From: Rhodobacterales bacterium LSUCC0031
GTDB lineage: Bacteria > Pseudomonadota > Alphaproteobacteria > Rhodobacterales > Rhodobacteraceae
Direction: 5' to 3'
Assembly (NCBI GenBank): GCA_015689735.1
Contig: WVSP01000001.1
Span: forward strand, 1,042,001-1,106,000
Length of the DNA stretch: 64,000 bases
This document shows, one piece after another, positions 4,292 through 18,212 of this stretch. The position numbers and the translations under genes were made by a program. The notes under the pieces were generated by a model that saw nothing but the letters and a program-made list of their open reading frames with translations, did no database searches and had not been told where the DNA came from. Position 1 is the stretch's first letter; each line of letters begins with the position of its first letter.

Positions 4292-4842
4292 TGCGTCCCC
4301 ATTTCGATGCAACCCCAAGGGATGCTTGTCGCCAGCCCGCACTATGGGCGTGGCAGGATCGGGCGGCAATCACACCAAAGTTGAACCCGCCCTGCAAAGG
4401 GGCGCCCAGGCCCCATGTTGCGCGCCGTCAATGTGCGAGTCGTCCGACGCTGGCAGGATAAAGTTCTCGATGAGGGGAACAGGAAAGGACATGGTTGCAA
4501 CCCTAGCAACGCAAGGCGCAAAGGTGGTCGCCAGGATGACCTGACCCACGATGAACCTCATCGGGCTGATCCGTCGCGTTTCGGGGACGGTGTATCAGGC
4601 GAAAACCTGAGATCACCCAACCGGCTCGCGGCGGGTCCGGTCCTGCCCCGGACCACGGGGGCGACGCGGTTGAGATGTCCCCAGTTCTCCCGTGTTGCCC
4701 CCGGTTTCGGGCCACATCCCGCCCGCAAGCCTCCGTTTGATGCCCGTCAATGCCGCCATCTTGGTCATTGCGCAGCCTGAGTGGCGGGCGCGTGGCCTGT
4801 GCCGTGGCAGCCCTGACCGTGACCAAAGCCGGAGCCGCTCTG
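4292..4842. other. intergenic region, 551 bp, no convincing gene
   Basis: Short open frames occur on both strands, but none has family features or a good ribosome site. The only signal I can support is the FNR box at 4737-4750 near the right end. The region marks the boundary between the envelope genes and the FNR-box island. Confidence 0.5.
4737..4750 (+). promoter_or_regulatory. FNR-type box, TTGATGCCCGTCAA
   Basis: A TTGAT-N4-GTCAA dyad, the closest to perfect symmetry in this window. Its centre is about 100 nt before the start of the helix-hairpin-helix gene at 4843. It is the same box type as eight others between 6.5 and 18.2 kb. Confidence 0.75.
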
Positions 4843-5817
4843 ATGCCGTCACCTATGCAATCTCCCAATGCCCCGATTGAAACCAATGTGCAGATCGCCG
4901 ATCACCTTGCCCACTATGCCGATCTGTTGGCAGCCGAAGGGGGTGATCGCTTTCGCCTCCGCGCTTATCGCGCCGCAGTCGAGGAGATTACGGCCCTTGA
5001 TCGACCCTTATCTGCGATTTTCGCGGCAGGCGGCATCGATGCGCTGATCGCGTTGCGCGGGATCGGCCGCGGGATTGCGGCGGCGATTGTCGAGATGCTG
5101 CAAACGGGTCGCTGGCGACAGCTTGAAGCGCGCGCGCAAAGCCTGACGCCTGCGCGACTCTTTGCGACGATACCCGGGATCGGTCCAGTTCTGGCCGATC
5201 GGCTGGTTGCGGATTTGGGGGTCGAAAGCCTCGCCGATCTCGAGGCGGCGTTGCGTCTTGGCGATGCCGAGGTGCAAGGGATCGGTGCGCGGCGGCGTGC
5301 GGCGATCTTGGCGGGCCTTGCGCAGCGCTTGAACCGCATGCCGATAGGGCCGCGCCGTGCCAAACCCGCACAGGCACCTATTCCGCCTGTCGCACTTTTA
5401 CTTGCCATCGATGCGCGCTACCGGGCCAAGGCTGCGGCCGGTGTGCTGCGCCTGATCGCCCCGCGCCGGTTCAACCCCGAGGGTGCCGCATGGCTGCCGA
5501 TCATGCATCACCACGCCGATGGGTGGGACTTTACCGCGTTGTTTTCAAACACCGCCAATGCACATGAATTGGGGCGCACACGAGATTGGGTCGTACTCTA
5601 TTTCCGCCGTGACAGCGGCCCAGAGGGACGCGCGACCATCGTCACCGAGACGCTCGGCCCTTTGAAAGGGTTGCGCGTCATTCGCGGCCAAGAAGAACCC
5701 TGCGCGCAGCATTACGCCCAGCATGACGCAATGCCCCCCGCGCCGGGTGACAGCGCGGGGGGCAATGGTCGTTTGGCTGGAGCGCGCACCAATGCTTTCG
5801 GCAAATTGGTCAACTGA
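4843..5817 (+). CDS. helix-hairpin-helix protein with a PolX/Pol-beta-like N-terminal domain
   Basis: 324 residues from the ATG at 4843 (GGAG 8 nt upstream). The N-terminus (HLAHYADLLAAEGGDRFRLR, AYRAAVEEI) matches the 8-kDa Pol-beta/PolX N-terminal fold. Two helix-hairpin-helix motifs follow: ALRGIGRGIAAAI and TIPGIGPVLADRLV, then a third weaker GIGARRRAAI. The C-terminal half (LLLAIDARYRAKAAAG, LPIMHHHADGWDFTALFSNT) lacks the polymerase Asp triad and the PHP nuclease. DNA binding without polymerisation is inferred, perhaps in repair under stress. An FNR box lies upstream. The 3' end overlaps the convergent BON gene by 8 bp, and a strong hairpin lies inside the last codons. Confidence 0.7.
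   Translation: MPSPMQSPNAPIETNVQIADHLAHYADLLAAEGGDRFRLRAYRAAVEEITALDRPLSAIFAAGGIDALIALRGIGRGIAAAIVEMLQTGRWRQLEARAQSLTPARLFATIPGIGPVLADRLVADLGVESLADLEAALRLGDAEVQGIGARRRAAILAGLAQRLNRMPIGPRRAKPAQAPIPPVALLLAIDARYRAKAAAGVLRLIAPRRFNPEGAAWLPIMHHHADGWDFTALFSNTANAHELGRTRDWVVLYFRRDSGPEGRATIVTETLGPLKGLRVIRGQEEPCAQHYAQHDAMPPAPGDSAGGNGRLAGARTNAFGKLVN
5732..5764. terminator. 12-bp perfect inverted repeat inside the 3' end of the HhH gene
   Basis: TGCCCCCCGCGC (5732-5743) pairs with GCGCGGGGGGCA (5753-5764) around a 9-nt loop. It lies within the last 30 codons of the HhH gene, 46 bp before the end of the convergent BON gene. It may terminate either transcript; no T-run follows. Confidence 0.45.
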
Positions 5818-6457
5818 CCGTCAGATGATCGACCACTTCGGTCACGCCTGGGGCTGACCATGCCGCACGCTCAGCGCTGCGCCGCTCGCCCAGGTAACGC
5901 ACGCGGCCCTCAAGCGTGACCTTGCCGCCATCGACATTGACCTTGATCGCGCTGGCATCAAGCTCGGCATCGCGCTGGAGCGCCTTTTGGATACGTTGGC
6001 TCACATCGGCGGGTTTCACCGCCGGGGTGATGCGCAGCCGGTTATTGACACCCGTCACCCCGACCAAGCGGCGCACCGCCTGTTCGGCGGCGGTGGATTG
6101 ATAATGCCATTCCACCTGACCCTCCAACGTCACCCAACCCTTGGTTACCGTGATCTTGATCTTTTCGTCCGGCACCGAGCTGTTCCATTTCAGCGTATTG
6201 ACGATACGCTTGGCGATCTCGTCATCGGCGGTGATATGGGCGCCAATCGGGCGCACTTCGATCTCGTCGGCGATGGCGCGCACCCCACGGATCCCTTCGA
6301 CGATCTCGCGGATCGTGACCTTGTCGCTGAAAGCGCGCACATGGCCGGTCAGCGTGACCACCTGCCCATCGACGGCCACGCCGATATCGGCGGCATCGAC
6401 GCTGGGTTCGAGGTCAAGCTCTTCCAGAATATCCAGCCGCAATTCCTTGTCGTTCAT
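5810..6457 (-). CDS. triple BON-domain protein (OsmY-like, no signal peptide)
   Basis: 215 residues with three BON domains in series, each with the VxxGxVxLxGxV core: VDGQVVTLTGHV, TKGWVTLEGQV and DGGKVTLEGRV. BON domains bind phospholipid or help membrane stability. E. coli OsmY is periplasmic, but no signal peptide is seen here, so a cytoplasmic or membrane-facing role is likely. AAGGAGG lies 5-6 nt before the ATG at 6457. It is divergent from a cytochrome c gene, with an FNR box between them centred 72 nt upstream of this start. Confidence 0.85.
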   Translation of the reverse strand: MNDKELRLDILEELDLEPSVDAADIGVAVDGQVVTLTGHVRAFSDKVTIREIVEGIRGVRAIADEIEVRPIGAHITADDEIAKRIVNTLKWNSSVPDEKIKITVTKGWVTLEGQVEWHYQSTAAEQAVRRLVGVTGVNNRLRITPAVKPADVSQRIQKALQRDAELDASAIKVNVDGGKVTLEGRVRYLGERRSAERAAWSAPGVTEVVDHLTVS

Positions 6458-6522
6458 GATCTTCCTCCTTGGGGTGGGTCAGTGTGCAGATCACGATCCT
6501 AATTGCCGCTTCGCCTGCGGCA

Positions 6523-6536
6523 TTGATAAGGCGCAA
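6523..6536 (+). promoter_or_regulatory. FNR-type box, TTGATAAGGCGCAA
   Basis: TTGAT-N4-CGCAA in the divergent promoter region between the BON gene and the cytochrome c gene. It fits the rhodobacterial FnrL consensus TTGAY-N4-VDCAA. Its centre is about 72 nt from the BON start and 106 nt from the cytochrome start. Confidence 0.65.
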
Positions 6537-6635
6537 GCCCTGCGCCCATAGCCGACTTGCGCCCCATCAATGTCGGCAAGCCATCATCAGCCCAGACTGA
6601 GCTGCGCGCGTTCCCCCCGTTGACAGGAGATCGAC

Positions 6636-7064
6636 ATGCCTCACTGCAATCCCGCTACCCAAAAACGGCTCGCCTTTGGCTTTGCCGCCGCGATGCTCGC
6701 TGCTTGGCCTGCCATGGCTGATGACGATGATGATGATACCGGGCGGCTCGAATACATGTATAGCTGTTCGGCCTGCCACGGCGAAAGCGCGCGCGGCGAT
6801 GGGCCGGTCGCGCGTTATCTGAATGTCGACACACCCGGCCTGACGACGCTTTCACGCGAGAATGATGGCGAATTTCCGCTCTACCGGGTGGTGCAGATCA
6901 TCGATGGGCGTCATGGGGTGGGTCCGCATGGCACGATCATGCCGGTCTGGGGCGCGCGGTTCATGCCGCAGGCCCTGGCCGAGGGTGGTCATTTCCGGGC
7001 CGAGGTCATCGTGCGCGGCCGCATCTTGTCGATCGCCCATTACCTCGAGTCGATCCAAGATTAG
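6636..7064 (+). CDS. periplasmic class I cytochrome c
   Basis: 142 residues. A signal peptide ends around AAWPAMA, and the mature protein then begins with a run of Asp. The haem site is CSACH, and the likely axial Met lies in GTIMPVWGARF. GESARGDGPVARYL is typical of single-haem c-type cytochromes accepting electrons in the periplasm. AGGAG lies 7-8 nt before the ATG. The partner is unknown. Its place next to an FNR box suggests use at low oxygen, for example with a high-affinity oxidase or a denitrification enzyme encoded elsewhere. The acidic N-terminus is unusual. Confidence 0.85.
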   Translation: MPHCNPATQKRLAFGFAAAMLAAWPAMADDDDDDTGRLEYMYSCSACHGESARGDGPVARYLNVDTPGLTTLSRENDGEFPLYRVVQIIDGRHGVGPHGTIMPVWGARFMPQALAEGGHFRAEVIVRGRILSIAHYLESIQD

Positions 7065-7130: not shown

Positions 7131-7649
7131 CTAGCTAGACTTGATCGCGATCTTGCGCGCCGTTTCACGGGCCTGTGCCGTTTTCGGGATGGTGATCGTC
7201 AAGATCCCTTGCGACAGGGTCGCTGTGATCTTGTCCGCATCCGCAGCACTTGGCAGGCGCAATCGACGCTGGAACGCACCATAGCGGCGTTCGCTCATCA
7301 AATAGTCGCCCCTCGTGTCGCGTTTTTCCTCGGCGATCTCACCACGCAAGGTCAACAGGCCGTCTTCAACATCAAGATCGATATCCGCGGGCAACAGGCC
7401 GGGCAATTCGGCCTTGATCTCGTACTGCCCGTCACAATCGATCAGCTCGAGCGCGGGCGATAGCAACGCGCCTGTGGCCAACGCCCCGCCGGGCGTAACG
7501 GCTTGCGGGCGAGGTGTGCGCCACAGGCCCACTCCGAAGTCATCAAAAAGCCGGTCAACCTCCTCGCGCAGGGTGCTGAGGGGCGTCCATAATGCGCCGT
7601 GGCTGGGCGATTGCGTCTGTGTTGGTTCGGCGTGTTTGGTCATCATCAT
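7131..7649 (-). CDS. small heat-shock protein Hsp20 (alpha-crystallin family)
   Basis: 172 residues from the ATG at 7649 (7646 and 7643 are in frame; AAAGGAGTG lies directly upstream). The alpha-crystallin domain spans roughly residues 60-160: PALELIDCDGQYEIKAELPG, DIDLDVEDGLLTLRGE, ERRYGAFQRRLRLP and LSQGILTITIPK. It is an ATP-independent holdase. Starting at 7862 instead would add a low-complexity Arg/Cys-rich stretch read across the promoter. An FNR box is centred 84 nt upstream. Confidence 0.88.
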   Translation of the reverse strand: MMMTKHAEPTQTQSPSHGALWTPLSTLREEVDRLFDDFGVGLWRTPRPQAVTPGGALATGALLSPALELIDCDGQYEIKAELPGLLPADIDLDVEDGLLTLRGEIAEEKRDTRGDYLMSERRYGAFQRRLRLPSAADADKITATLSQGILTITIPKTAQARETARKIAIKSS

Positions 7650-7726
7650 CACTCCTTTTGGTGGGGGTAGCGCCGCGTGCTTCGACCTGCCCTCTGGCAA
7701 TGCTGCCTGATCCGGCCCGCACCACA

Positions 7727-7740
7727 TTGACCGGCCGCAA
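7727..7740 (+). promoter_or_regulatory. FNR-type box, TTGACCGGCCGCAA
   Basis: TTGAC-N4-CGCAA in the gap between the fnr-like gene and hsp20, which are both on the minus strand. It is centred about 84 nt from the hsp20 start, so hsp20 probably has its own promoter. Confidence 0.65.
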
Positions 7741-7761: not shown

Positions 7762-8649
7762 TCACAGCGGCAAATGCCGCTGCATCTTATCGGTCTGTGC
7801 CAATGTCGTCGCCGCATGCCGCGCTGCGAGAAAGGGTGCTGGGGCCGCATGCTGGTAACCATGGTCCTTGTTCAGGCGGCCATCTTCATGAACTGGCACC
7901 TCGGGCCGGCAATTGGCCAACACATCGTCCACGGGGTCGATCCCAGCCATATCGGCCAGATCGGCCAGATTGTTGATCCGAAACCGCCCCTGTGTGCGGC
8001 TTTCGATCACACCCTGCTCAGCCAATTGACCCAGCGTGCGACAGATCGTTTCGACGGTTGTATTCGTCATATCGGCCCAATCGCGCCGTGAGATCGGCAC
8101 CGTAACGATCATCCCGCCATCGGGCAAATCTTCGGTCGGCATGATCTCGGCGGCCATGACAAGAAAGGCGATGATCCGCTCACGGCTGCTCAGAGCACCG
8201 CGCCGCCACAAGAATTCAAGCTGGCGGGCATGTTGCTCCGCGGCGGCGCGCAAGACCTGCATCCGCAGCGCAGGCTCTCGTTCGAAAAGACGACGTAAAA
8301 CTTGGGGGTCAAAGCTGCAAATCTCGACATCGGTTGCCGCACTGATGCTGCATTTGCCCTCTGGCTCAAGCCACGCGCCCACAGGATCGGCAGGCAATGT
8401 CAGCCCCACGATGCTGCGCCGCCCGTCTTCGAGAATGCGCTCCGTCCGCAGGTAGCCGCGGCGCAAGATGCCGGTCAACTTCGGGCTTTCGCCTTCATCT
8501 TGTAAAACCCACCCCGAGGGGAGCTTGCGTACCCTAATGCCGGCCCGCCCGACCGACGCGGCCGCGACCGCCTTGCAGACTGTGCGGGTGCGTAGTGTAC
8601 ACGATCCACATGCATCTTGGGCCGCTTGGCCGTTTTGCGCTGTCGCCAT
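7762..8649 (-). CDS. FNR-type transcription regulator with N-terminal Cys cluster
   Basis: 295 residues. Cys14, Cys17 and Cys25 (ACGSC...TVC) resemble the 4Fe-4S cluster arm of FNR/FnrL, with Cys100 and Cys111 as candidates for the fourth ligand. The cNMP-binding-type beta barrel runs to about residue 130. The HTH domain has NTTVETICRTLGQL; the E-T-x-x-R pattern matches the recognition helix of E. coli FNR (E209, R213), which reads TTGAT half-sites. GGGAGG lies 9 nt before the ATG. The C-terminus is about 50 residues longer than in FNR. It is the likely oxygen sensor for the boxes in this island; no box lies before this gene itself. Confidence 0.8.
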   Translation of the reverse strand: MATAQNGQAAQDACGSCTLRTRTVCKAVAAASVGRAGIRVRKLPSGWVLQDEGESPKLTGILRRGYLRTERILEDGRRSIVGLTLPADPVGAWLEPEGKCSISAATDVEICSFDPQVLRRLFEREPALRMQVLRAAAEQHARQLEFLWRRGALSSRERIIAFLVMAAEIMPTEDLPDGGMIVTVPISRRDWADMTNTTVETICRTLGQLAEQGVIESRTQGRFRINNLADLADMAGIDPVDDVLANCRPEVPVHEDGRLNKDHGYQHAAPAPFLAARHAATTLAQTDKMQRHLPL

Positions 8650-8678: not shown

Positions 8679-9158
8679 TCAACCTTCGGTCACTTGTGAT
8701 TGTGCGATGATCGCGCGGACCCGTTGGCGCAGTGCGCCTTCGGGTAGCGTCATGAGTTGGCGCGCGGACTGCGTGATGAGCCCGTCACGCAAAACCGCCG
8801 AAAGGTGCGTTTGCAAGGTTGGTAGGATTGATGGATCGGCCAAAATGACCAGTCGATCAAAGTGATGGGCATGATGACGTAGCTCGAGGAACGACAAGAT
8901 GTCCTCCACGAAATCTACCATGTCGCGGCGCAGGGCCGCAGCGATCGCAGCTGTCGCTGCTGCCCCATTGGACCCTTGTGCAGCCGTGCTATGTTGCGCG
9001 ACCCCAGGCTTGTCCTCTGGCGCGACAATCGCACGAAGATGCGCGCCGGATGCATGGCTGATGAATTCGATCGGCTCTTCGCCGTCAAGGCCATTGAACC
9101 CGCGCAGCACCCTCGCTCGCTTCGGGTCGATCACCAGTGCCCACGTCCGAACAGCCAT
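8679..9158 (-). CDS. Host_attach / baeRF-like protein
   Basis: 159 residues. The start RTWALVIDPKRARVLRG and the later HFDRLVILADPSILPTLQTH and LPEGALRQRV match the Host_attach family (PF10116), related to bacterial release-factor-like folds. Its biochemical role is not established; the family name comes from an Agrobacterium attachment phenotype. An FNR box is centred about 70 nt upstream. The fnr-like gene starts 29 bp after this gene ends, so the two may share a transcript. Confidence 0.75.
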   Translation of the reverse strand: MAVRTWALVIDPKRARVLRGFNGLDGEEPIEFISHASGAHLRAIVAPEDKPGVAQHSTAAQGSNGAAATAAIAAALRRDMVDFVEDILSFLELRHHAHHFDRLVILADPSILPTLQTHLSAVLRDGLITQSARQLMTLPEGALRQRVRAIIAQSQVTEG

Positions 9159-9220
9159 TGCGCCCCCAATTCATTACCGATGCAATATTTGCATTTCGTC
9201 ACAAAAGGACCGATCGGACA

Positions 9221-9234
9221 TTGATCTAGCGCAA
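9221..9234 (+). promoter_or_regulatory. FNR-type box, TTGATCTAGCGCAA
   Basis: TTGAT-N4-CGCAA between the divergent Host_attach gene (start 9158) and the second Crp/Fnr gene (start 9423). Its spacing suits the Host_attach promoter. An AT-rich stretch at about 9260-9320 follows on the side of the Crp/Fnr gene. Confidence 0.65.
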
Positions 9235-9422: not shown

Positions 9423-10205
9423 ATGACGTTTCTCGATGCGACTAATCGCTTGTGCGCCTTCAGCATGATCGCGGATCTGGCAGAATTGCCGCATGATCTG
9501 CGCGAAGCCTTGAACAAGATCTGTCAGCTGCGCCATCTGCGCCAAGGTCAGGTGATTGCCCATCCCGGCGAGCCCCATGATCTGGTCGGCTTTGTGGCTG
9601 AAGGAATATTGCGCATGCAAAAAACCTTGCCTGATGGCCGCCAACATGTCGTTGGCTTGCTGGTGCCAGGTGATGTCTATGGCCGCGTCTTCGATGGTGC
9701 GATGCAGTTCTCGATCGAGGCTGCAACAGAGGCCAAGGTATTCGTCTTTCCCCGGCATGCTTTCGAAGCGTTGCTTTCAGCCTCGCCTGCGCTTGACCGG
9801 CTGATGCTATTGCATTTTTTGACTGAAATCGATCGCACCCGTGATTGGATGGTGATCTTGTCCAATCCCAAGGTGCGTGGCCGCTTGGCCGGGTTCTTGA
9901 TGATGCTTTGCACCCGGTTTCGCAATATCGAAGGGATGCTGGGCTCGATGAACGGCATGTTGACGGTCAGCATTCCGATCAGCCGGGCCGATCTGGCGCA
10001 TCTGTTGGGGGCGCGGGCAGAATCGATCAGCCGTGCCTTTCACGCGTTGGCCGATGATGGGATGATTGACATCATTCGCCCTGATCTGGTCGTTTTGCGC
10101 AGTATCGAAGATCTCGCCGACGAGGCGGGTGAGCCCGAAATGGGTGAGGCGATATTGACCGAAGACCTGCCAAGCCACCGCATCGGATCGCTACGGCGGC
10201 TATAG
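9423..10205 (+). CDS. Crp/Fnr-family transcription regulator without an Fe-S arm
   Basis: 260 residues from the ATG at 9423, with AGGGAGGGG just upstream; a start at 9234 would read through an AT-rich, poorly coding leader. The effector barrel (LRQGQVIAHPGEPHDLVGFV, DGRQHVVGLLVPGD) is followed by the HTH SRADLAHLLGARAESISRAF. E-S-I-S-R keeps the Glu, Ser and Arg used by FNR/DNR to read TTGA half-sites. There is no N-terminal Cys cluster, so it cannot hold the FNR-type 4Fe-4S centre; a DNR-like sensor of NO or another signal is possible. It may share targets with the FNR-like protein at 7762-8649. Confidence 0.82.
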   Translation: MTFLDATNRLCAFSMIADLAELPHDLREALNKICQLRHLRQGQVIAHPGEPHDLVGFVAEGILRMQKTLPDGRQHVVGLLVPGDVYGRVFDGAMQFSIEAATEAKVFVFPRHAFEALLSASPALDRLMLLHFLTEIDRTRDWMVILSNPKVRGRLAGFLMMLCTRFRNIEGMLGSMNGMLTVSIPISRADLAHLLGARAESISRAFHALADDGMIDIIRPDLVVLRSIEDLADEAGEPEMGEAILTEDLPSHRIGSLRRL

Positions 10206-10227: not shown

Positions 10228-10242
10228 TGCCCCTCAGGGGCA
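10228..10242. terminator. small hairpin between convergent genes
   Basis: TGCCCC and GGGGCA flank the loop TCA, which contains the stop codon of the minus-strand lipoprotein gene. It sits in the 28-bp junction of two convergent genes. The stem is short and termination is uncertain. Confidence 0.3.
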
Positions 10243-10518
10243 AGCCGCTTCAAAATAGGTGCCGTCGCCACGGGCATATGCGCAGCGCCCCGTGGCACTG
10301 TTTTGTGCGACCAAGGTACCGGCCGCCGCCCCCGCCAAGGCCGCGATCAGCCGCCAATTGCCATCGGCATCGAACGCCTCGGCCGTCAAGAGGCCCGTAG
10401 CAGCACCCGCCGTCATGCCGACCAAGGTGCGTTGTTCGCTGGTCAGGTTTTCACAGCCCGCCACCAAGGTCGTTCCCAGCCCTAGCATCAGCCCAGCAAT
10501 CGTCATGCGCGCGCTCAT
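10234..10518 (-). CDS. small glycine-zipper lipoprotein
   Basis: 94 residues. The signal peptide ends in the lipobox LVAG/C (MLGLGTTLVAGCEN). The mature part has GMTAGAATGLL and ALAGAAAGTLVAQ, small-residue repeats of the glycine-zipper kind that insert into or line membranes. The C-terminus has two Cys (RCAYARGDGTYFEAAC), perhaps a disulfide. It starts with an ATGA overlap on the stop codon of the CBS gene, so the two are translationally coupled and share its FNR-box promoter. Function is unknown. Confidence 0.7.
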   Translation of the reverse strand: MSARMTIAGLMLGLGTTLVAGCENLTSEQRTLVGMTAGAATGLLTAEAFDADGNWRLIAALAGAAAGTLVAQNSATGRCAYARGDGTYFEAACP

Positions 10519-11015: not shown

Positions 11016-12035
11016 TCATTGACCGGGCGCAAAGGGCAAGGCGGCGGGGCGTGGCGGTGTTGGCGGTACCGGGGCGGGCGGCCAGATCGGGCCACCATGC
11101 AACCGCGCAATCGCCGCCGCGAGCATCGGGGCAAGGCCGAGCACCCTGAGCTTTGGATCATCCTGTACGAAGGGGCCGACACTATCGGTGACCGTCAGCC
11201 GATCCACCCCGTCACCTTGCCTAAGCCGTGTGATCGCTTGCGCCGAAAATAGCCCATGGCTTGCCATTGCGTGAACGCGCGCTGCGCCATGCGTGCGCGC
11301 GGCTTGGGCTGCACGCAAGATCGTGCCGCCGCCACAGATCATGTCATCGAGAATATAGACCTGTGCGCCCGCAACATCGCCGGCAAAAAGCGACCCCGCG
11401 ACAACACCCGCGCTGCGGCGTTTGTCCATGAAGGCAAAGCCTGCATCCTCCAAGCCGATGCTCTGTACAGCCGCATGCAGCAATTGCGCACGTTTGATGC
11501 CGCCCGGATCAGGCGCCATCACCACGCAAGGCCCGCCGTGATCATCCGCCGCGATCAGGGCTGCAAACAGCGCCTCGGTGGTCAGATGCAGCGTCGGGAT
11601 GCGAAAAGCGTTCTCGAATGCGGCAAGGTTGTGGACATCCACCGTCACGATCTGGTCGCAGCCCATCGCCTCGATCGCTTGCGCGATATAACGCGCCGAA
11701 ATCGGATCATGCGCCTTGGTGCGGCGATCCTTGCGCATATAGGGCAGGTAGGGGGCGATCAGGCTAATCCGCGCGGCACCAAGATCGCGGCACGCGGCGC
11801 AAAAGAACATCGCCCGCATGAGCCGGTCATTGCACGAGGCATCCTGCCCCCCCTGCAAGGCGGCAAGGATAAAGACATCATGGCCACGTGGATCGGTCAA
11901 GGGGCGGGCCTTGTGCTCGCCCATCTCGAAATCGCGTTCCTCATGCGGTGCAACGCCCCAGCCGCCCACTGCGGCGATGCGCTGGCCCAAATCCTCGATC
12001 CCTTTGAGTGCGAAAAACAACATGAGGTCGATCAT
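11016..12035 (-). CDS. atypical ribose-phosphate pyrophosphokinase (PRPP synthetase) paralogue
   Basis: 339 residues. PRPP-synthetase landmarks are present: LIAPYLPYMRKDRRTKAHDP (ATP loop), DVHNLAAFENAF (metal-binding Asp-His), APDPGGIKRAQ and MDKRR. The PRPP-binding loop reads LDDMICGGGT instead of the usual DDMIDTAGT, and the C-terminus is Pro-rich. This points to a divergent paralogue, not the housekeeping Prs. Such copies accompany phosphoribosyltransferases in stress islands. No clear ribosome site precedes the start at 12035 (12023 is an alternative). An FNR box lies just upstream, in the divergent region shared with the DUF2267 gene. Confidence 0.78.
   Translation of the reverse strand: MIDLMLFFALKGIEDLGQRIAAVGGWGVAPHEERDFEMGEHKARPLTDPRGHDVFILAALQGGQDASCNDRLMRAMFFCAACRDLGAARISLIAPYLPYMRKDRRTKAHDPISARYIAQAIEAMGCDQIVTVDVHNLAAFENAFRIPTLHLTTEALFAALIAADDHGGPCVVMAPDPGGIKRAQLLHAAVQSIGLEDAGFAFMDKRRSAGVVAGSLFAGDVAGAQVYILDDMICGGGTILRAAQAARTHGAARVHAMASHGLFSAQAITRLRQGDGVDRLTVTDSVGPFVQDDPKLRVLGLAPMLAAAIARLHGGPIWPPAPVPPTPPRPAALPFAPGQ
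11019..11032 (+). promoter_or_regulatory. FNR-type box, TTGACCGGGCGCAA
   Basis: TTGAC-N4-CGCAA located within the last codons of the PRPP-synthetase-like gene and centred about 67 nt before the CBS gene start at 10958. Confidence 0.6.
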
Positions 12036-12057: not shown

Positions 12058-12071
12058 TTGCGGACAATCAA
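12058..12071 (-). promoter_or_regulatory. FNR-type box, TTGATTGTCCGCAA on the minus strand
   Basis: The plus strand reads TTGCGGACAATCAA. The box sits between the divergent PRPP-synthetase-like gene (start 12035) and the DUF2267 gene (start 12130, centre about 65 nt away). The spacing fits the DUF2267 promoter better. Confidence 0.65.
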
Positions 12072-12129
12072 TGCAGAGCCCCCGGCGTGCAGACAGCCTG
12101 ACATGACAAAACCCGCGAAAGGATTTTCC

Positions 12130-12531
12130 ATGTCGGATACTGGTATCGCTTCGCTTGATCATGCCCCCGATGTCTTGCGCCATTGGCTCGACGTGATCTG
12201 TGATGATCTCGGGTGGTCGGACCAGCGCAGGGCCTATCTGCTTTTGCGTGAAACGCTGCATGGGTTGCGCGATATGATGGGCGTGGATGAAGCGGCCGCG
12301 TTTGGCGCCCAACTCCCGATCTTGGTGCGCGGCGTGTTCTTCGAGGGGTGGAACCCGACCTTCCCAAGCGCCCCATCCGCGCCCGTCCTAGACCTGGATA
12401 CAAAACAACGCGACGCCGCCGAGCGCGCTGTGGCGGCGGTGATGGCGCTGCTGCTCCAGCATTTGCGCACGGGGGTGATCGCCCAGACGCGATCAGAGCC
12501 GTGCCGCCCCATGCCCACGGTCGGTGCGTGA
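12130..12531 (+). CDS. DUF2267 protein
   Basis: 133 residues from the ATG at 12130, with AAAGGA 6 nt upstream. The core APDVLRHWLDVICDDLG and AYLLLRETLHGLRD, followed by AFGAQLPILVRGVFFEGWNP, is typical of DUF2267, a small helical family common in stress-gene clusters and of unknown function. Its stop overlaps the start of the APH-like gene by one base (TGATG), so the two are coupled. An FNR box lies upstream. Confidence 0.85.
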   Translation: MSDTGIASLDHAPDVLRHWLDVICDDLGWSDQRRAYLLLRETLHGLRDMMGVDEAAAFGAQLPILVRGVFFEGWNPTFPSAPSAPVLDLDTKQRDAAERAVAAVMALLLQHLRTGVIAQTRSEPCRPMPTVGA

Positions 12532-13575
12532 TGACGCTGACCCACTCTGGGGTCGCCTTGCCGCATGCGCGTGGCAATGGATTGGGCGAGAAATGCGATT
12601 TCATGATGCATCGGGCATGGCCACAACGCCCGCTGCCGCAGATGATCGAAACCCACGCCTCTTTGATCTTTCTGACCAATGACCGGGCATATAAGCTCAA
12701 AAAGCCTGTGCAACTCCCGCATGCCGATATGCGCAGCCTGGCCGCGCGCGAGGCCCTTTGCGTTGAGGAGTTGCGCTTGAACCGCGCGTTGGCGCGTGAT
12801 GTCTATCTTGGCCTCATCGCGCTGGTGCGCCGCCCGGACGGGTCCTTGGGTCTGGGCGGCCCCGGCCGTGTGATTGATTGGCTGGTCGAAATGGTCCGCT
12901 TGCCGGCGGCGCAGATGCTCGACCAACGCTTGCTGGTCGGTCCACCGCCAAGCCACGACGAGATTGCAGATTTCGGCCGGGTCATGATCACGTTTTATCG
13001 TCATCAACACGCGCCTCCAGGGGCCGCTGGGCGTTACATGGATCGCTTGACCCGCGAAATGGCGACCGATCTGCGCCATCTCTCGGAGATGCGCGTCCAT
13101 CTTGGCGCAAGTTGGTCCGATACGCTCTTTCAAGATGCGCCGATCATGTTGGCGCAGATGCGCGCGGCAATCGAAACGCGTGGTAAAGCGGGGCTCGTAT
13201 TCGAGGGGCATGGCGATCTGCGTGCCGAGCATGTTTGTTTGATCCGTCCCCCCGTTGCCTTTGACAGGGTCGAGTTCAATCATGACTTCCGGCTGATTGA
13301 CCCACATGACGAGATTGCGGGACTTGGGCTTGAAGCAGCGCAGCTTGGTGCCGAATGGATCGGGCCGCTTCTGTCGGAGCAACTCGCCATGGCGGGTTTC
13401 ACGCCACCGCCCCCCCATGCTGCGCACCGTGTATCTGATGGCGCGCTGCTTGACGCAGGCCCGCCTTGCCATCGATCACCTGCGCGACCCGAGCCCACGC
13501 ACCCCGGCAAAATGGGCTCCCCGTGCGCGCAGTTTCCTCGATATGGCGCGCATGGTTATGGGGGGCGGTGGCTAG
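12531..13575 (+). CDS. APH-like kinase (COG2187 N-terminal half), apparent +1 frameshift
   Basis: Starts at 12531, overlapping the DUF2267 stop. It is similar to the N-terminal, aminoglycoside-phosphotransferase-like half of COG2187 proteins: ETHASLIFLTNDRAYKLKKP, FEGHGDLRAEHVC (catalytic-loop position) and RLIDPHDEIAGLGLE. The AAA-type C-terminal kinase half is absent. The start frame runs to 13643, but after a run of seven C at 13410-13416 its sequence stops looking like the family. The +1 frame then supplies a fitting end (MLRTVYLMARCLTQARLAI, then PAKWAPRARSFLDMARM) to a stop at 13575. One extra C, real or from sequencing, explains this. Confidence 0.65.
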
Positions 13576-14230
13576 GCGTTTGCAGTTGCGCATCAAGCGC
13601 TGCGCTGACCTCGGCATCACTAATTTGCGGAAAATCAGCATAGTGGGCGCCGACCGCATGAAAGGGCAGGGGGTTTTCGAGGCAGATCACCTGATCAACC
13701 AAAGGCCGGATCGCATCAAGCGCTGTGCGCGGAGCAACCGGGATTGCGACGATCACGCGCGCGGGGCCTTGCGCCTGTAGCCACCCCAGTGCGGCCCGTA
13801 GGCTTGCCCCGGTAGCGATCCCGTCATCCACCAGCACGATGGTTCTGCCGCCAAGCCCTATGGCTGCGCGCCCGTCTTGCCAAAGCGCACGGCGGCGCGC
13901 GATCTCGGCCAAGGCGGGTTCGGCCAATGCATCGATATCGGCACCCGACAACCCGGCGGCCTGCGCGATATCTTGATTGATCGCGATGCGGTGCTGCGCT
14001 CCATCGGTCACGGCGGCGACCGCAAGTTCCGGCTGCCCCGGCAGACCAAGCTTGCGCACCAAGACCACATCAAGCGGGGCATGCAGCGCTTGCGCGATCA
14101 CGGCTCCGAGCGGCACACCACCGCGTGGTAAGGCAAGAATGATGGGCGCCTCACGCGCGCCCAAGGCCGCCTTGATCGGTGCGACAAGGCGTTGGGCAGC
14201 GTCGCGGCGATCACGAAAGACCCAGCCCAT
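13556..14230 (-). CDS. phosphoribosyltransferase-family protein
   Basis: 224 residues from the ATG at 14230, starting MGWVFRDRRDAAQRLV. APIILALPRGGVPLG and DVVLVRKLGLPGQPELA are typical of the two-component-like PRTase family found with stress genes. The PRPP loop is IVLVDDGIATGASLRAAL, a good match to the DDGxxTGxT consensus. Substrate unknown; a link to the atypical PRPP synthetase in the same island is plausible. A four-base gap separates it from the small HTH gene upstream. It is convergent with the APH-like gene, overlapping its corrected end by 20 bp. Confidence 0.85.
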   Translation of the reverse strand: MGWVFRDRRDAAQRLVAPIKAALGAREAPIILALPRGGVPLGAVIAQALHAPLDVVLVRKLGLPGQPELAVAAVTDGAQHRIAINQDIAQAAGLSGADIDALAEPALAEIARRRALWQDGRAAIGLGGRTIVLVDDGIATGASLRAALGWLQAQGPARVIVAIPVAPRTALDAIRPLVDQVICLENPLPFHAVGAHYADFPQISDAEVSAALDAQLQTPSHRPP

Positions 14231-14234
14231 GAGC

Positions 14235-14534
14235 TTATCGCCGCCATAATCGCTGAAAAAGAAACCGCATCCATTGATATGGACACCACGCGCGCTTGCC
14301 TTGAAGCGGGGGGATTGCGCCACGCTGCGGGGCGGTTCGCGTTGTGACCGATAAGCGGTGTGCGTCACCGGCGCGGGCCAGCAAGCGGCGCACCATCGTG
14401 CGGTCGATCTGCAAATGGCGCGCGATTTCGTCTTCGCCAAGTCCCAGATCGGCGAACATGGCAACGGTGGCTTCCGGCCAAGGGCCAAGATGGTCGAGCG
14501 CAGGGGTAGGGGGAGTGCGTGGTTGCTCGGTCAT
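14235..14534 (-). CDS. small predicted helix-turn-helix protein
   Basis: 99 residues. WPEATVAMFADLGLGEDEIARHLQIDRTMVRRLLARAG has the spacing of a homeodomain-like HTH, with recognition helix TMVRRLL. The tail is Arg- and aromatic-rich and may not be structured. It lies between the universal stress gene (18-bp gap) and the phosphoribosyltransferase gene (4-bp gap), all on the minus strand, so one FNR-box operon is likely. I do not recognise a named family. Confidence 0.5.
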   Translation of the reverse strand: MTEQPRTPPTPALDHLGPWPEATVAMFADLGLGEDEIARHLQIDRTMVRRLLARAGDAHRLSVTTRTAPQRGAIPPLQGKRAWCPYQWMRFLFQRLWRR

Positions 14535-14552: not shown

Positions 14553-15080
14553 TTAATGGACGACGACGACCGTGCGCTCGGTGGCGTGCAAGACCTTTTG
14601 GGTGACACTGCCCAGCACCATCTCGCGCAGCCGCCCCAGCCCACGCCGCCCTAAAACGATCATGCCAGCCGCTTCGGCTTCGGCCAGTTCGAGAATTTCA
14701 TCGGCATAATCGCCGGCGGCATTATGGCTGCGAATATCTTGTGCGCCTGCGGCTTCGGCGCTGCTGCGGGCGCGGGCAAGAATCTCGTCGCCAATTGCCG
14801 CGATGACCAGCACACGTTCGATCTCGCTTTGCGTCGCGGCATAAAAGGCACCAAGGCTTTCAGCCTGCGCACGGGCGCTGAACGTCTCTTGGTGGCGTAG
14901 ATGATCGAGAAGGTGCTCTGTTTCCGCCAATCGTGTCAGTTCGGCCGAGGGACGGGTGTGGAGCTGTACATGGATGATGCTCAGCCCACGCTGGAGCTTG
15001 GCTGACAAAAGTGCGGCACATGCCACGGCGCGTTCACCCGTGGGAGATCCATCCGTTGCCACCAAGATCCGGTCCGTCAT
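14553..15080 (-). CDS. universal stress protein (UspA family)
   Basis: 175 residues from the ATG at 15080, with GGGAGG 8 nt upstream. RILVATDGSPTGERAVACAA is the N-terminal strand-loop. GMIVLGRRGLGRLREMVLGS is the ATP-binding G-2x-G-9x-G(S/T) type signature, followed by VTQKVLHATERTVVVVH. It is a cytoplasmic ATP-binding stress protein. An FNR box is centred 74 nt upstream. It heads a probable operon with the HTH and phosphoribosyltransferase genes. Confidence 0.9.
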   Translation of the reverse strand: MTDRILVATDGSPTGERAVACAALLSAKLQRGLSIIHVQLHTRPSAELTRLAETEHLLDHLRHQETFSARAQAESLGAFYAATQSEIERVLVIAAIGDEILARARSSAEAAGAQDIRSHNAAGDYADEILELAEAEAAGMIVLGRRGLGRLREMVLGSVTQKVLHATERTVVVVH

Positions 15081-15147
15081 CGCGCGCGCCTCCCACTGCT
15101 GGCTCTTGTTTCGTCGGATATTCTCGGACGTCGCGGCCAAGGGTGCA

Positions 15148-15161
15148 TTGCCCGCCATCAA
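15148..15161 (-). promoter_or_regulatory. FNR-type box, TTGATGGCGGGCAA on the minus strand
   Basis: The plus strand reads TTGCCCGCCATCAA. The box is in the gap between the LuxR gene's stop (15169) and the universal stress gene's start (15080), on the same strand, giving the usp operon its own promoter. Confidence 0.65.
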
Positions 15162-15168: not shown

Positions 15169-16479
15169 TCACAAGGGCAAGGCGCGGGCCATGTGCAGCA
15201 ACAGCGCCACCAACTCGCTTTGGCGACGTGTGCGGGTTTTGCGCATGATCGACGATAATTGGTTGCGGAGCGTCTGTTTCGAGACGGCCTGTGCGCGCGC
15301 CACTTCGGGCAAGCTGCGCCCCTCGAGCAGAGCTTGCGCCAAGTCAACCTCGCGTGTCGTCAAGGCAAAAACCTCGCCCAAGGCATCGCGCTCAAGTTGA
15401 AGCGGCGCTGTGCTGTCGATCACCATGATCGCCACACGACCGCCTGTGCGACCATCGCCAAGGGGGCCATCCACTTGTCCTAAAGCCGTGAGCGGGGTCA
15501 GGCTGGCAAGCCTTGGCCGGCCATGTTTGGCCGCGCGTAGCCCGATCATCATGCTGCGCGCGCGCGATGACTGTCCAAGGGCTGCAATCGCCTCCAAAAG
15601 GCTGGCCGTATCTGCGGGGTCATTGCTGTGCAAACGGCGATCCATGCCCAAGTTCAAGTCGCCCCCATTGCGCAAAAGGCGCTCGGCATGCGCGTTCATC
15701 ATCTCAACGAGGCCATCTTGGCCCACCACGAATGTTGGAAAACTGCTGAGTTCCAAGAGGGTTTGTGCCGTGCGGCGGGATTGGTCCGCGTCTTGTGCAA
15801 GTGCGGCGATGCGGGTTGCATGCTGAAGATGCGGCGCGACCTCGGCCAGAAAACCCGCCGCAATAGCTGCGATCTGGCGGGCAGCATGGGCGGGGTAGCG
15901 GATTTCAAGCGACGTCTGCACCGGGCCATCACGGGTGATCACGACGCCGGTCGCCGCATCGAAATCACCCGCCTGACCAAGCCAATCGCGAAAGAAAGGC
16001 GTTGTTCGGAAATCTTTCCGCGCCATCAGCGCGTCATCGTGAAACACCACGCCTACGGGCTTTTGTCGATGGGCGCGCAAAAGGGGGTTTGCCCGTACGA
16101 GGGGCAATGGCATCGCAGGCATCGCGCCGTCGCCCAGGCCGCGATGCAGCAGACCGCAGCCACCCGGCTGCGCGGGATCTTGCCGAAAGTATAAAATGGC
16201 GGCTTCGGGGAAATGGGCCGCGACGAGATCAAGGGCCAAGTCGTGAAAGCGCCCCGCAAGCGCGGCTTCATACAGTGCGCCGATCTCTTCACATGTCACA
16301 TGCAGAGTTTCCCCCAAGGCACCGTCTGGCATGCTATCCCCTCGACACAAGCGATCCATTTCGCTGGCTTGGCGGTCAAGGTCGATAGGCCGCCCCCAAA
16401 GGGGCGCTGCAAAGAGCGCCTGTGATAAAGGCGAGCTTGGTGTGCAACTGGCCTGACGGAATGCCGCCGCGGCGGTCAT
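15169..16479 (-). CDS. LuxR-family transcription regulator
   Basis: 436 residues from the ATG at 16479. A longer frame back to 16569 would read through the FNR box, so I prefer the later start. The middle carries a PAS-like segment (LLELSSFPTFVVGQDGLVEM). The C-terminus is a LuxR HTH: FALTTREVDLAQALLEGRSL, PEVARAQAVSKQTLRNQLSS and IMRKTRTRRQSELVALL. No receiver domain is seen, so it senses something itself. It lies between the stress genes and the curli set and might regulate either. Confidence 0.82.
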   Translation of the reverse strand: MTAAAAFRQASCTPSSPLSQALFAAPLWGRPIDLDRQASEMDRLCRGDSMPDGALGETLHVTCEEIGALYEAALAGRFHDLALDLVAAHFPEAAILYFRQDPAQPGGCGLLHRGLGDGAMPAMPLPLVRANPLLRAHRQKPVGVVFHDDALMARKDFRTTPFFRDWLGQAGDFDAATGVVITRDGPVQTSLEIRYPAHAARQIAAIAAGFLAEVAPHLQHATRIAALAQDADQSRRTAQTLLELSSFPTFVVGQDGLVEMMNAHAERLLRNGGDLNLGMDRRLHSNDPADTASLLEAIAALGQSSRARSMMIGLRAAKHGRPRLASLTPLTALGQVDGPLGDGRTGGRVAIMVIDSTAPLQLERDALGEVFALTTREVDLAQALLEGRSLPEVARAQAVSKQTLRNQLSSIMRKTRTRRQSELVALLLHMARALPL

Positions 16480-16522
16480 GGCGACCGCTTGGCCTTGGTC
16501 GCGCGAATCGCGCGTTTGGGCA

Positions 16523-16536
16523 TTGATGATCCGCAA
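16523..16536 (+). promoter_or_regulatory. FNR-type box, TTGATGATCCGCAA
   Basis: TTGAT-N4-CGCAA centred about 50 nt before the chosen LuxR start (16479), in the gap after the csgH stop at 16566. It supports the shorter LuxR reading frame. Confidence 0.65.
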
Positions 16537-16565
16537 ACCTTTGTCTCGGCGGTCGGCGTTCCCTG

Positions 16566-16919
16566 TCACAGCACCGCGCGGCAGATGATATCGCGGCCTG
16601 CAAAGACCGTCAGATCGGCCCTCAAGTTATCATCGCCGACCAGCCGGACCGAGGCCCTGCCAAGCAGCACCGCAGAGCCATCGGGGGCGCTGGCCTGAAA
16701 TGCGCCGCGTTGCGTATTGTATGAGTGGCCGGAAGTGCCTTGCTTGCCAACCCGGAACTGGTAGCTGCCCATCAGAGGATAGGCGCTTTCGACAAAGGCA
16801 GACAGATGCATAACTTGCCCCGCGCGACTGAGGCGGATGAAACACCCCGGCCGCTCAGCCATATCCGTTGCAGCTGCCATATGGGGAAGCAGCAGGGAGG
16901 TGGCCATGACGAGGCGCAT
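16566..16919 (-). CDS. csgH: curli assembly protein CsgH
   Basis: 117 residues from the ATG at 16919 (GGGAG 6 nt upstream). A signal peptide (RLVMATSLLLPHMAAATDMA) precedes a small beta-sandwich: CFIRLSRAGQVMHLSAFVE, GSYQFRVGKQGTSGHSYNTQ and RGAFQASAP. This matches the alphaproteobacterial CsgH family, periplasmic CsgC-like proteins that hold back curlin amyloid formation. It lies downstream of two curlin-like genes on the same strand. Confidence 0.72.
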   Translation of the reverse strand: MRLVMATSLLLPHMAAATDMAERPGCFIRLSRAGQVMHLSAFVESAYPLMGSYQFRVGKQGTSGHSYNTQRGAFQASAPDGSAVLLGRASVRLVGDDNLRADLTVFAGRDIICRAVL

Positions 16920-17040
16920 CGCCATCTCCCTGCCGCCCGCCAACCATGCCCTTGGCCGTGATCCATGGCGGGAACGTCTCTCCATTCGCATGATCCTTTG
17001 GTCAAATGGCATGATCGGTGTTACCCGGCCCATGGCCGGA

Positions 17041-17448
17041 TCAGTCGATGGTCACATCGAAACGTGTGCCAAGGCCCCCGGCATGGCCGCTATGGCTGCG
17101 GATGACGGGGCTGAGCCTGGTGTCGCCTTGGGTCAGCGAACTCACCCCCGCGTCACCGCTTTGTTCGACGATGGCCTGATCGCCGTCGCCTGTCTGTGTC
17201 AGTCCTGACAGGTTATAGCGCCCCTCTTGGGTGACCTCGGCCGCGTTCTCGTTGCCGTTTTGCAAAACGAACGAGAAGTTGCGCCCGTCTTGGGTGGTCG
17301 TGACGCTATTGGCGATCCCGTGTTGGATGATCTCGGACAGGTTTTGCGCCGTGGCGGCCCCTGCCGCGAGGGTGATTGCGCCTGCAAGAAAAAGGCGCAG
17401 GGACCGATGATAGCATAATGGATGCGGCAAAGCTGTGCCCTCCTGCAT
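17041..17448 (-). CDS. csgB: curlin-repeat protein, minor/nucleator type (CsgB-like)
   Basis: 135 residues from the ATG at 17448 (a GTG at 17478 is possible). The signal peptide ends ITLAAGAATAQ. The mature part has degenerate curlin repeats with regularly spaced Gln, Gly and Asn: IIQHGIANSVTTTQDGRN, FVLQNGNENAAEVTQEG, LTQTGDGDQAIVEQSG. Repeats are less regular than in the next gene upstream, suggesting the nucleator CsgB; this assignment is inference. It lies 72 bp after csgA. Confidence 0.72.
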   Translation of the reverse strand: MQEGTALPHPLCYHRSLRLFLAGAITLAAGAATAQNLSEIIQHGIANSVTTTQDGRNFSFVLQNGNENAAEVTQEGRYNLSGLTQTGDGDQAIVEQSGDAGVSSLTQGDTRLSPVIRSHSGHAGGLGTRFDVTID

Positions 17449-17520
17449 GGCAGATGGTGATGTAGTCGGCGGGGTCACCCAGCCTGCGATGGTCGCAATG
17501 CTGGGCGACCCCTTGCGCGA

Positions 17521-17913
17521 TCAGTTGGACTGAACGGTCAGCGACATGTTGCCGATGCCATGCTGGACGGCTTCGGACTGATGCCCGCTGCCAAACTGCA
17601 TCGTGGCGGCGTCATTGAACGCACCGAACTGGTCGGTGATCGACAAGTTTCCGCCGCCCACTTGGTTGGTGGCCGAGAAATTGCCCACACCCGTCTGCAT
17701 GGTCAGCGAGCCGTTGAAGCCACCCGGCACACCATGGCCGCCAATCTGGCCGCCAAACTGCCCGGTATAGGAGCCGTTATAGTCACCATTCTGCATCGTG
17801 CCTTGCGCATTGCCGATGCCATACTGCTCGACCAGCGACCAGTTGCCATCGGCACTCGCGGCCCCTGCGGCAAGGGCTGTGGATGCGATCAGGGTCAAAA
17901 CGAAACGTTTCAT
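17521..17913 (-). CDS. csgA: curlin major-subunit-like protein (CsgA-like)
   Basis: 130 residues from the ATG at 17913 (AAGGAG 9 nt upstream). The signal peptide KRFVLTLIASTALAAGAASA is followed by five or so curlin repeats: LVEQYGIGNAQGTMQNG, LTMQTGVGNFSATNQVG, LSITDQFGAFNDAATMQFG and AVQHGIGNMSLTVQ. A glycine-rich insert (GGQIGGHGVPGGFNG) breaks the pattern. Curlins polymerise on the cell surface into biofilm amyloid fibres. The export and nucleation genes csgE, csgF and csgG are not in the window. Confidence 0.8.
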   Translation of the reverse strand: MKRFVLTLIASTALAAGAASADGNWSLVEQYGIGNAQGTMQNGDYNGSYTGQFGGQIGGHGVPGGFNGSLTMQTGVGNFSATNQVGGGNLSITDQFGAFNDAATMQFGSGHQSEAVQHGIGNMSLTVQSN

Positions 17914-18198
17914 GCTTGGATCTCCTTGGATGAACACATCGGCCTGAGCGACCGATAAGAGCATCCTGTGCAAGCAGACCTGCCGATGCGCGGTCGCGAA
18001 TGTCTGGCCCGGATGGGGCAGATGACCGATGCGCCGGCAAAACGGCGCGTCATCGCGAACACTTGGCCCGGTTTGGCGGATCAATGTGGGGCATCGGGAT
18101 GCGGGTGATCCAAATGCGACGGCAAAAGGACGATGGTTTGGGTCATTCATACCATCCCCATGGGCCGCGATACCGCCGAGCCATGACGCTTTCGCTCA

Positions 18199-18212
18199 TT
18201 GCGGCCGGTCAA
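18199..18212 (-). promoter_or_regulatory. FNR-type box, TTGACCGGCCGCAA on the minus strand
   Basis: The plus strand reads TTGCGGCCGGTCAA. As a 14-mer it is identical to the box before hsp20. It is centred about 77 nt before the outer-membrane barrel gene (start 18283). Confidence 0.65.

What the first reader, a model, noticed from the sequence alone, without database searches (positions are those of the whole stretch)
4737..18212. Nine FNR boxes make a 13.5-kb stress island one putative regulon
TTGAY-N4-(C/G)GCAA or GTCAA boxes occur at 4737, 6523, 7727, 9221, 11019, 12058, 15148, 16523 and 18199. Nearly all lie with centres 50-100 nt before a chosen start codon: HhH, BON/cytochrome, hsp20, Host_attach, CBS, DUF2267/PRPP, usp, LuxR, OM barrel. 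Two Crp/Fnr regulators with the E-x-x-x-R type recognition helix are encoded in the middle. The gene set (Hsp20, Usp, CBS, PRPP-like, phosphoribosyltransferase, DNA-binding HhH) suggests an oxygen-limitation survival programme like DosR in function.
Basis: partly seen in the sequence, partly recalled or inferred. Interest (0 to 1): 0.75.

Follow-up and report, generated by a model that had tools for sequence, protein, structure and literature searches.

The report
Oxygen-limitation stress island with own regulators
A 14-kb stretch of a bacterial genome appears to be a single low-oxygen survival programme, in which about ten stress and surface gene units share the same switch sequence and two likely switch proteins are encoded inside the stretch.

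Summary
TTGAYNNNNSGCAA occurs 11 times in the window, all in 4418-18212 (shuffle mean 0.82). That is 11 of the genome's 80 matches in 13.8 kb (expected 0.37).

Related islands show that the boxes matter. 39 of 55 orthologous promoters outside the window carry a box 35-120 nt upstream (shuffles 0.47, mirror pattern 0). Aligned on the box, 59 promoter rows have a -10-like hexamer 22 nt downstream (z = 12, 0 of 300 shuffles), the spacing of class II activation.

Corrections: the boxes are oriented and followed by TG in 11 of 11 window rows and 45 of 47 others; FnrL-core promoters have TG after 3 of 60 boxes. PRPP synthetase is not an in-register target; 15334 is probably background. LuxR and the OM-like gene flank curli-type genes.

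Closest known system: the Bradyrhizobium FixK2 stress regulon. The variant here is a compact island with a four-cysteine Fnr, an FnrL relative without the cysteine cluster, and its own extended box. An oxygen response was not shown.

The parts
4418..4433 (+). extended box TTGCGCGCCGTCAATG, points to HhH from about 420 nt upstream; possible promoter of a leader or small RNA
   Evidence: -10-like CAGGAT in register
4737..4752 (+). box for HhH (TTGATGCCCGTCAATG)
4843..5817 (+). HhH protein (HHH_8, PF14716)
5810..6457 (-). protein with three BON domains
6521..6536 (-). box for BON, centre 72.5 nt before start
6557..6572 (+). box for the cytochrome gene, centre 72.5 nt before start
6636..7064 (+). 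small c-type-cytochrome-like protein (CxxCH in the sequence; Pfam cytochrome matches below cut-off)
7131..7652 (-). Hsp20
7725..7740 (-). box for hsp20
7762..8649 (-). Fnr2: Crp/Fnr regulator with four conserved cysteines, helix ETICR
8679..9158 (-). Host_attach / baeRF family 12 protein, probably first gene of a baeRF-fnr2 unit
9219..9234 (-). box for baeRF-fnr2, centre 69.5 nt before start
9423..10205 (+). Crp2: FnrL relative without a cysteine cluster, helix ESISR; no in-register box of its own seen
10234..10518 (-). glycine-zipper protein, downstream of CBS
10515..10958 (-). CBS-pair protein; best PDB hit Rv2626c
11017..11032 (-). box for CBS, overlapping the 3' end of the PRPP-synthetase gene
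11016..12035 (-). ribose-phosphate diphosphokinase; no in-register box
12058..12073 (+). box for the DUF2267 unit
12124..12531 (+). DUF2267 protein (start chosen near 12124-12130)
12531..13643 (+). kinase-like protein (aminoglycoside-phosphotransferase likeness recalled; no Pfam, NCBIfam or PDB hit)
13556..14230 (-). phosphoribosyltransferase
14235..14534 (-). small protein between Usp and the phosphoribosyltransferase (only sub-cut-off HTH matches)
14553..15083 (-). universal stress protein
15146..15161 (-). box for the Usp unit (TTGATGGCGGGCAATG)
15169..16479 (-). LuxR-type regulator (GerE match just below cut-off) beside the curli-type genes; start uncertain
16521..16536 (-). box for the LuxR gene
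16566..17033 (-). CsgH (27.6 bits, cut-off 27)
17041..17478 (-). curlin-repeat protein (csgB-like)
17521..18150 (-). csgA-like protein by place and repeats; curlin match only E 0.19, below cut-off
18199..18214 (+). box for the OM-like gene (TTGCGGCCGGTCAATG, -10-like TAGCCT)
18244..19062 (+). outer-membrane-barrel-like protein (sub-cut-off Pfam match); start uncertain

Best explanation
The island is a compact oxygen-limitation stress regulon. About ten transcription units (HhH; BON; cytochrome; hsp20; baeRF-fnr2; CBS-glycine zipper; DUF2267-kinase-like; usp-small gene-phosphoribosyltransferase; LuxR; OM-like) start from class II promoters: an oriented Crp/Fnr box, TTG-N7-TCAATG in most, centred at about -41.5, whose TG overlaps the -35 element, followed after 22 nt by a -10-like hexamer of the form nAnnnT. 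An FNR-family activator bound there would touch RNA polymerase and switch the units on together when oxygen falls. The likeliest activators are the island's own pair. Fnr2 has the four cysteines that hold an oxygen-labile Fe-S cluster in FNR and lies in a unit that carries a box, which predicts feedback. Crp2 is an FnrL relative with no cysteine cluster, hence controlled by expression or by an unknown ligand. Products: a chaperone, CBS and Usp proteins that may sense nucleotides, phosphoribosyl metabolism and, through LuxR (inferred), curli fibres. Shown: boxes, conservation, orientation, -10 register, gene families, cysteines. Inferred: operons, activation, oxygen as the signal, which regulator, LuxR acting on curli.
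For: Clustering. Conservation: 39 of 55 orthologous promoters against 0.47 expected and 0 mirror (25 loci besides the window were examined, 22 gave rows, and 12 further rows were dropped because their alignment began more than 20 residues in); nearest box at 64-82 nt for baeRF, 60-68 for CBS, 60-68 for DUF2267. Class II spacing: z = 12 over 59 rows, next highest 4.0; in the 47 rows outside the window, A at position 2 and T at position 6 coincide at that offset in 24, against a mean of 1.8 and a maximum of 6 at other offsets. TTG-N7-TCAATG: 93 within 10 kb of crp2 in 21 loci with fnr2, mirror 0. Four cysteines invariant in 4 aligned; N-terminal motif in 19 of 20 loci with a reliable fnr2 (frameshifted L099 and 5 wrong-gene rows left out). 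A box 518-621 nt before fnr2 in 17 of 22 distinct loci with baeRF. The FnrL core boxes of the same genome are palindromic and none is followed by TG (L125 rows; genes identified). Precedent: FixK2 targets in PMC9104804 Table 2.
Against: No expression or binding data. FnrL can bind a TTGCG half-site in R. sphaeroides (hemN, TTGCGcaggATCAA, PMC2908626), so FnrL could also read these boxes. 16 of 55 tested orthologous promoters have no broad box, among them 5 of 7 hsp20, 3 of 5 usp and 3 of 7 BON rows; the three usp ones have degenerate boxes at the same place. Two of the ten island TCAATG sites (baeRF, LuxR) have no -10-like match in register. crp2 has no in-register box. CBS homologues in genomes without close fnr2 or crp2 often still have a box, so the pair is not needed for Crp/Fnr control of such genes.
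Confidence: 0.72

Rival explanations
1. The genome's global FnrL alone reads all these boxes; the island regulators act elsewhere or only modulate.
For: FnrL is in the genome at C1:558 kb (NCBIfam FnrL equivalog, 451 bits, beside hemN, usp and ccoN) and binds the same core; R. sphaeroides FnrL binds TTGCGcaggATCAA at hemN (PMC2908626). CBS homologues in genomes without close fnr2 or crp2 (only hits near 30% identity that may be FnrL, or 37-38%) keep a box at 60-90 nt in 4 of 7 (G177, G275, G180, G072).
Against: FnrL-core boxes are palindromic and followed mostly by GG or GC, with TG in 3 of 60; island-type rows have TG in 56 of 58. A TG box at 60-68 nt before CBS is present in 6 of 6 genomes with crp2 at 50% identity or more and in 1 of 8 others (second CBS copy of G377 not counted).
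Confidence: 0.25
2. The boxes are chance or codon-driven and the genes are not co-regulated.
For: Outside the island, 21 of the first 30 asymmetric matches lie inside genes predicted by my own simple caller; site 15334 lies in LuxR coding sequence and has no TG.
Confidence: 0.02
3. The signal is nitric oxide or redox rather than oxygen itself (Dnr-like or FixK2-like control through Crp2).
For: Crp2 has no cysteine cluster; Dnr-type regulators share the core box (PMC5398030, passages).
Against: Fnr2 keeps the FNR cysteines; no denitrification family appears among the 20 island frames scanned.
Confidence: 0.15

Closest known systems
FixK2 regulon of Bradyrhizobium diazoefficiens (bll4634-blr4655 and bsr6066-blr6074; PMC9104804 introduction and Table 2, passages)
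   Same: Same box class, including TTGACCTAGCGCAA and TTGCGCTAGGTCAA, many at -66 to -89; same families: Hsp20, Usp, host attachment protein, CBS protein, cytochrome c, PHB polymerase; FixK2-dependent in microoxia.
   Different: FixK2 is controlled by FixLJ and is not described as part of the stress cluster; no Fe-S FNR partner or curli gene in the rows seen.
FnrL regulon of Rhodobacter sphaeroides and relatives (PMC2908626, passages)
   Same: FNR-family control; a Usp target and phbC among the bound sites.
   Different: Palindromic TTGAY-N4-RTCAA, in relatives here followed mostly by GG/GC; targets scattered over the genome.
FnrL and Dnr cascade of Dinoroseobacter shibae (PMC5398030, abstract and passages)
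   Same: Several FNR-family regulators in one rhodobacterium; Usp genes are FnrL targets.
   Different: Aimed at denitrification and electron transport; dnrE is transcribed with nos genes.
DosR regulon of mycobacteria (PMC5309233, passages)
   Same: Gene content: alpha-crystallin, Usp, CBS (Rv2626c is the best PDB hit of the island CBS protein), phosphoribosyltransferase; Rv2004c likeness of the kinase-like protein is recalled, not tested.
   Different: DosR is a two-component response regulator (that its box differs is recalled); regulators here are Crp/Fnr.

Membership tests
FNR (oxygen-sensing Fe-S Crp/Fnr regulator), for Fnr2 | Three N-terminal cysteines plus one in the sensor barrel | tested here: met
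   C14, C17, C25 and C111 invariant in 4 aligned; columns hold C in 20, 23, 19 and 23 of 26 rows, wrong-gene rows included
FNR (oxygen-sensing Fe-S Crp/Fnr regulator), for Fnr2 | E-x-x-x-R recognition helix | tested here: met
   ETICR
FNR (oxygen-sensing Fe-S Crp/Fnr regulator), for Fnr2 | Oxygen-labile [4Fe-4S] cluster | not testable with these tools
   needs purified protein
FnrL (NCBIfam NF045989 equivalog), for Fnr2 and Crp2 | Score over the curated cut-off of 300 bits | tested here: not met
   Fnr2 94.3, Crp2 136 bits; the genome's FnrL 451
FixK2-type stress regulon | Boxes TTG(A/C)-N6-(T/G)CAA upstream of Hsp20, Usp, CBS and host attachment genes | tested here: met
FixK2-type stress regulon | FixLJ-controlled FixK | not tested
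   no search for FixLJ was made; Crp2 groups with FnrL in a tree without FixK rows
Class II FNR-dependent promoter | Box centred at -41.5, so the -10 hexamer starts 29.5 nt after the centre | tested here: met
   as a set; single promoters such as baeRF and LuxR of the window lack a clear hexamer
DosR regulon | DosR-type response regulator and DosR box | not tested
   only gene families were compared

The most novel reading that the evidence does not exclude
The island is a self-contained, transferable low-oxygen regulon. Its own Fnr2/Crp2 pair reads an extended box (RTCAATG) that is insulated from the host's FnrL (RTCAAGG/GC) by the bases just 3' of the core, so that two FNR-family circuits run side by side in one cell and bring stress survival and curli production under one switch.
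Probability: 0.4. Interest if true: 0.65.

Novelty: new variant of a known kind. Interest (0 to 1): 0.5.

Why it matters
It gives a sequence-level handle on a standing question: how several FNR-family regulators with nearly the same core box stay separate in one alphaproteobacterium. The difference in the two bases after the box (TG against GG/GC) is directly testable. It also shows a DosR-like and FixK2-like set of survival genes packed, with putative regulators and curli-type genes, in one locus of Rhodobacteraceae.

Tried and rejected
(1) Idea that the Ser to Cys change in the Fnr2 recognition helix (ETICR) caused the shift to TTGCG half-sites. Counts looked suggestive (asymmetric:palindromic 26:15 in Cys loci against 11:33 in Ser loci). 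At the baeRF box TTGCG is found in three distinct Cys rows (window, L085, L086) and in the Ser row G006, and on a tree these fall in one clade: one lineage, and G006 contradicts it. Rejected as evidence.
(2) Other clusters of asymmetric matches in the genome (C2:465 kb, C1:942 kb, C3:100 kb): all in genes predicted by my caller. Background.
(3) Curli link outside the island: 5 other LuxR homologues were found in 394 family genomes (loci of about 1.5 kb each side only). G006 (L151) has csgA and csgB hits and a box near the uncertain LuxR start; L153 has curlin hits but no box; L154 and L155 have boxes but no curlin hit; L152 has neither. Not general.
(4) Rfam scan of 4000-19000 at gathering thresholds: no match.
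(5) The orphan box at 4418 was followed for a small RNA; four loci have the same extended box, but only the window and L083 align partly downstream. Unresolved.
(6) One of 41 tree rows (FnrL_L066) had an extreme branch (8.34) and is unreliable.
(7) Paper search needing 5 of 6 terms (Crp Fnr, Roseobacter, small heat shock protein, universal stress protein, oxygen limitation, regulon): 0 papers.
Full report
WHAT IS THERE. The window is part of a 2.98-Mb genome in 7 contigs. From about 4.4 to 19 kb lie HhH, BON, a small cytochrome-like protein, Hsp20, a Crp/Fnr regulator (Fnr2), a Host_attach/baeRF protein, a second Crp/Fnr regulator (Crp2), a glycine-zipper protein, a CBS pair, a PRPP synthetase, DUF2267, a kinase-like protein, a phosphoribosyltransferase, Usp, a LuxR-type regulator, CsgH, a curlin-repeat protein, a csgA-like protein and an OM-barrel-like protein. 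The cytochrome, LuxR, csgA and OM names rest on sub-cut-off matches and, for the kinase-like protein, on recall. PHB depolymerase and synthase genes follow.

THE BOXES. All nine reported boxes are present. TTGAYNNNNSGCAA occurs 11 times in 64 kb, all in 4418-18212, against 0.82 in shuffles. The genome has 80 matches (mirror control 4). The island density is 0.80 per kb against 0.023 elsewhere, and the largest cluster in 20,000 random placements was 7. Of the first 30 genome matches, all outside the island, 21 lie inside genes predicted by a simple caller of mine. The palindromic form with up to one mismatch is not enriched in the window.

CONSERVATION. Matches to Crp2 at E <= 0.001 occur in 43 of 61 genomes and include paralogues; close ones (E < 1e-50) are in 4 of 12 other same-genus genomes. 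The genome-contig scan gave 24 loci, nearly all titled as Rhodobacteraceae genera. The gene order is nearly complete in G001 and partial in G006, G009 and G011. With starts set by alignment to the window proteins, 39 of 55 orthologous promoters outside the window have TTG(A/C)-N6-(T/G)CAA at 35-120 nt, against 0.47 expected and 0 mirror matches; 25 loci were examined, 22 gave rows, and 12 further rows were dropped because their alignments began more than 20 residues in. Against: 5 of 7 tested hsp20 rows, 3 of 5 usp rows and 3 of 7 BON rows have none.

PROMOTER ARCHITECTURE. Aligning 59 box-bearing promoter rows (12 from the window, one of which, sm1, is probably not real; two sites, in the window and in L083, are counted in both directions) shows one dominant -10-like peak 22 nt after the box, 29.5 nt from its centre, z = 12 and 0 of 300 base shuffles; the next highest offset has z = 4.0. 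This is the spacing expected for an activator centred at -41.5 (established knowledge of class II FNR promoters; boxes at -41.5 are listed in PMC7713065, passages). Outside the window, A at position 2 and T at position 6 coincide in 24 of 47 rows at that offset, against a mean of 1.8 and a maximum of 6 at others. The box is followed by TG in 11 of 11 window rows (10 sites) and 45 of 47 other rows. In the window rows the gene-distal half is TTGCG in 8 of 11 and the gene-proximal half is TTGAY (read on the other strand) in 9 of 11. The TG would fall on the -35 element (inference). Of the ten island TCAATG sites, eight have a -10-like hexamer within one base of the register; baeRF and LuxR do not. 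Orientation assigns targets: 12058 points to DUF2267 and not to PRPP synthetase; 18199 has an in-register hexamer towards the OM-like gene and not towards csgA; 15334 has no TG on either side and lies in LuxR coding sequence.

A BOX CLASS OF ITS OWN. The FnrL core locus of the same genome was identified with NCBIfam and Pfam (hemN, FnrL at 451 bits, ccoN, Usp). Its boxes are palindromic and followed by GG, GC or AT. Over 25 loci searched, 62 promoters of these four genes were examined, 48 had a box, and of 60 boxes (shared sites counted once per direction) 27 are followed by GG, 11 by GC and 3 by TG; all half-sites are TTGAT or TTGAC. A published alphaproteobacterial consensus ends in ...GATCAANG (PMC4999443, passage), so the G is general and the T is what sets the island apart. 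TTG-N7-TCAATG occurs 38 times in the genome (mirror 2), 10 of them in the island. Of the 30 with a locus (8 had none), outside the island one precedes a second Host_attach gene at 77.5 nt with a -10-like match; one lies 79.5 nt before another Crp/Fnr gene (no -10-like match; a gene that resembles a phasin, by recall only, lies on the other side); one precedes an unidentified gene at 90.5 nt without a -10-like match. Around crp2, 21 loci with fnr2 hold 93 such boxes (mirror 0), and 5 loci without a nearby fnr2 hold 7; one of these five is a short contig of a genome whose fnr lies on another contig.

WHICH REGULATOR. The genome has five Crp/Fnr genes over the Pfam cut-off. Fnr2 has the FNR cysteine pattern, invariant in four aligned orthologues and with the N-terminal motif in 19 of 20 reliable loci. 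Its gene follows baeRF, and a box lies 518-621 nt before fnr2 in 17 of 22 distinct loci with baeRF, which predicts feedback. Crp2 has no such cluster and groups with FnrL (100/98) in a 41-row tree that has one unreliable long branch and no FixK rows. As a natural test, CBS homologues were found in 14 of 394 family genomes. A TG box at 60-68 nt is present in 6 of 6 genomes with crp2 at 50% identity or more, including one without a close fnr2 (G367), and in 1 of 8 others. That favours Crp2, or the pair, over FnrL, but n is small, the identity line was drawn after seeing the data, and 4 of those 8 still have some box at 60-90 nt.

COMPARISON WITH WHAT IS KNOWN. In PMC9104804 (passages of the introduction and Table 2) FixK2-dependent units with such boxes include Hsp20, Usp, host attachment protein, CBS protein, PHB polymerase and cytochrome c. 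PMC2908626 (passages) predicted Hsp20, CBS and cytochrome c in the alphaproteobacterial FixK regulon and Usp in the FNR core. So the kind is known. The island form with its own Fnr/Crp pair, the TG-extended box and the link to curli were not met in the listings of my searches (an open-licence library, a few papers read in passages), which does not show that they are unpublished. The DosR parallel is one of gene content (PMC5309233, passages; Rv2626c as best PDB hit).

VERDICT. Its oxygen role is likely but not shown. It is a new variant of the FixK/FNR stress regulon.

Noticed in passing
4418-4740: An extended box with a -10-like hexamer points into a 300-nt gap before HhH; the same extended box lies a similar distance before HhH in G001, and a core match without TG does so in G006. 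Possible small RNA or second promoter.
   Followed up: partly
16521-18214: Curli-type genes sit next to a boxed LuxR-type gene, the place that CsgD holds in enterobacteria (recalled). csgA- and csgB-like hits and a box near the LuxR start also occur in G001, G006 and G009.
   Followed up: partly
L126:2798-7401 (C1 592.8-597.4 kb): A second Host_attach/baeRF gene with a TG box, and a divergent pair of a phasin-like gene (recalled; no family hit) and another Crp/Fnr gene with an asymmetric TG box: possible satellite of the same regulon.
   Followed up: partly
19092-22277: PHB depolymerase and synthase genes border the island here and in G001 (89% and 85% identity), but not in the same way in G006 or G009.
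   Followed up: partly
L074, crp2: The crp2 orthologue of G001 has an in-frame stop shortly after the DNA-binding domain.
   Followed up: no
L088: A record titled Martelella mediterranea USBA-857 (UNVERIFIED_ORG) carries the gene pair otherwise seen in Rhodobacteraceae; the name may be wrong or the island transferred.
   Followed up: no
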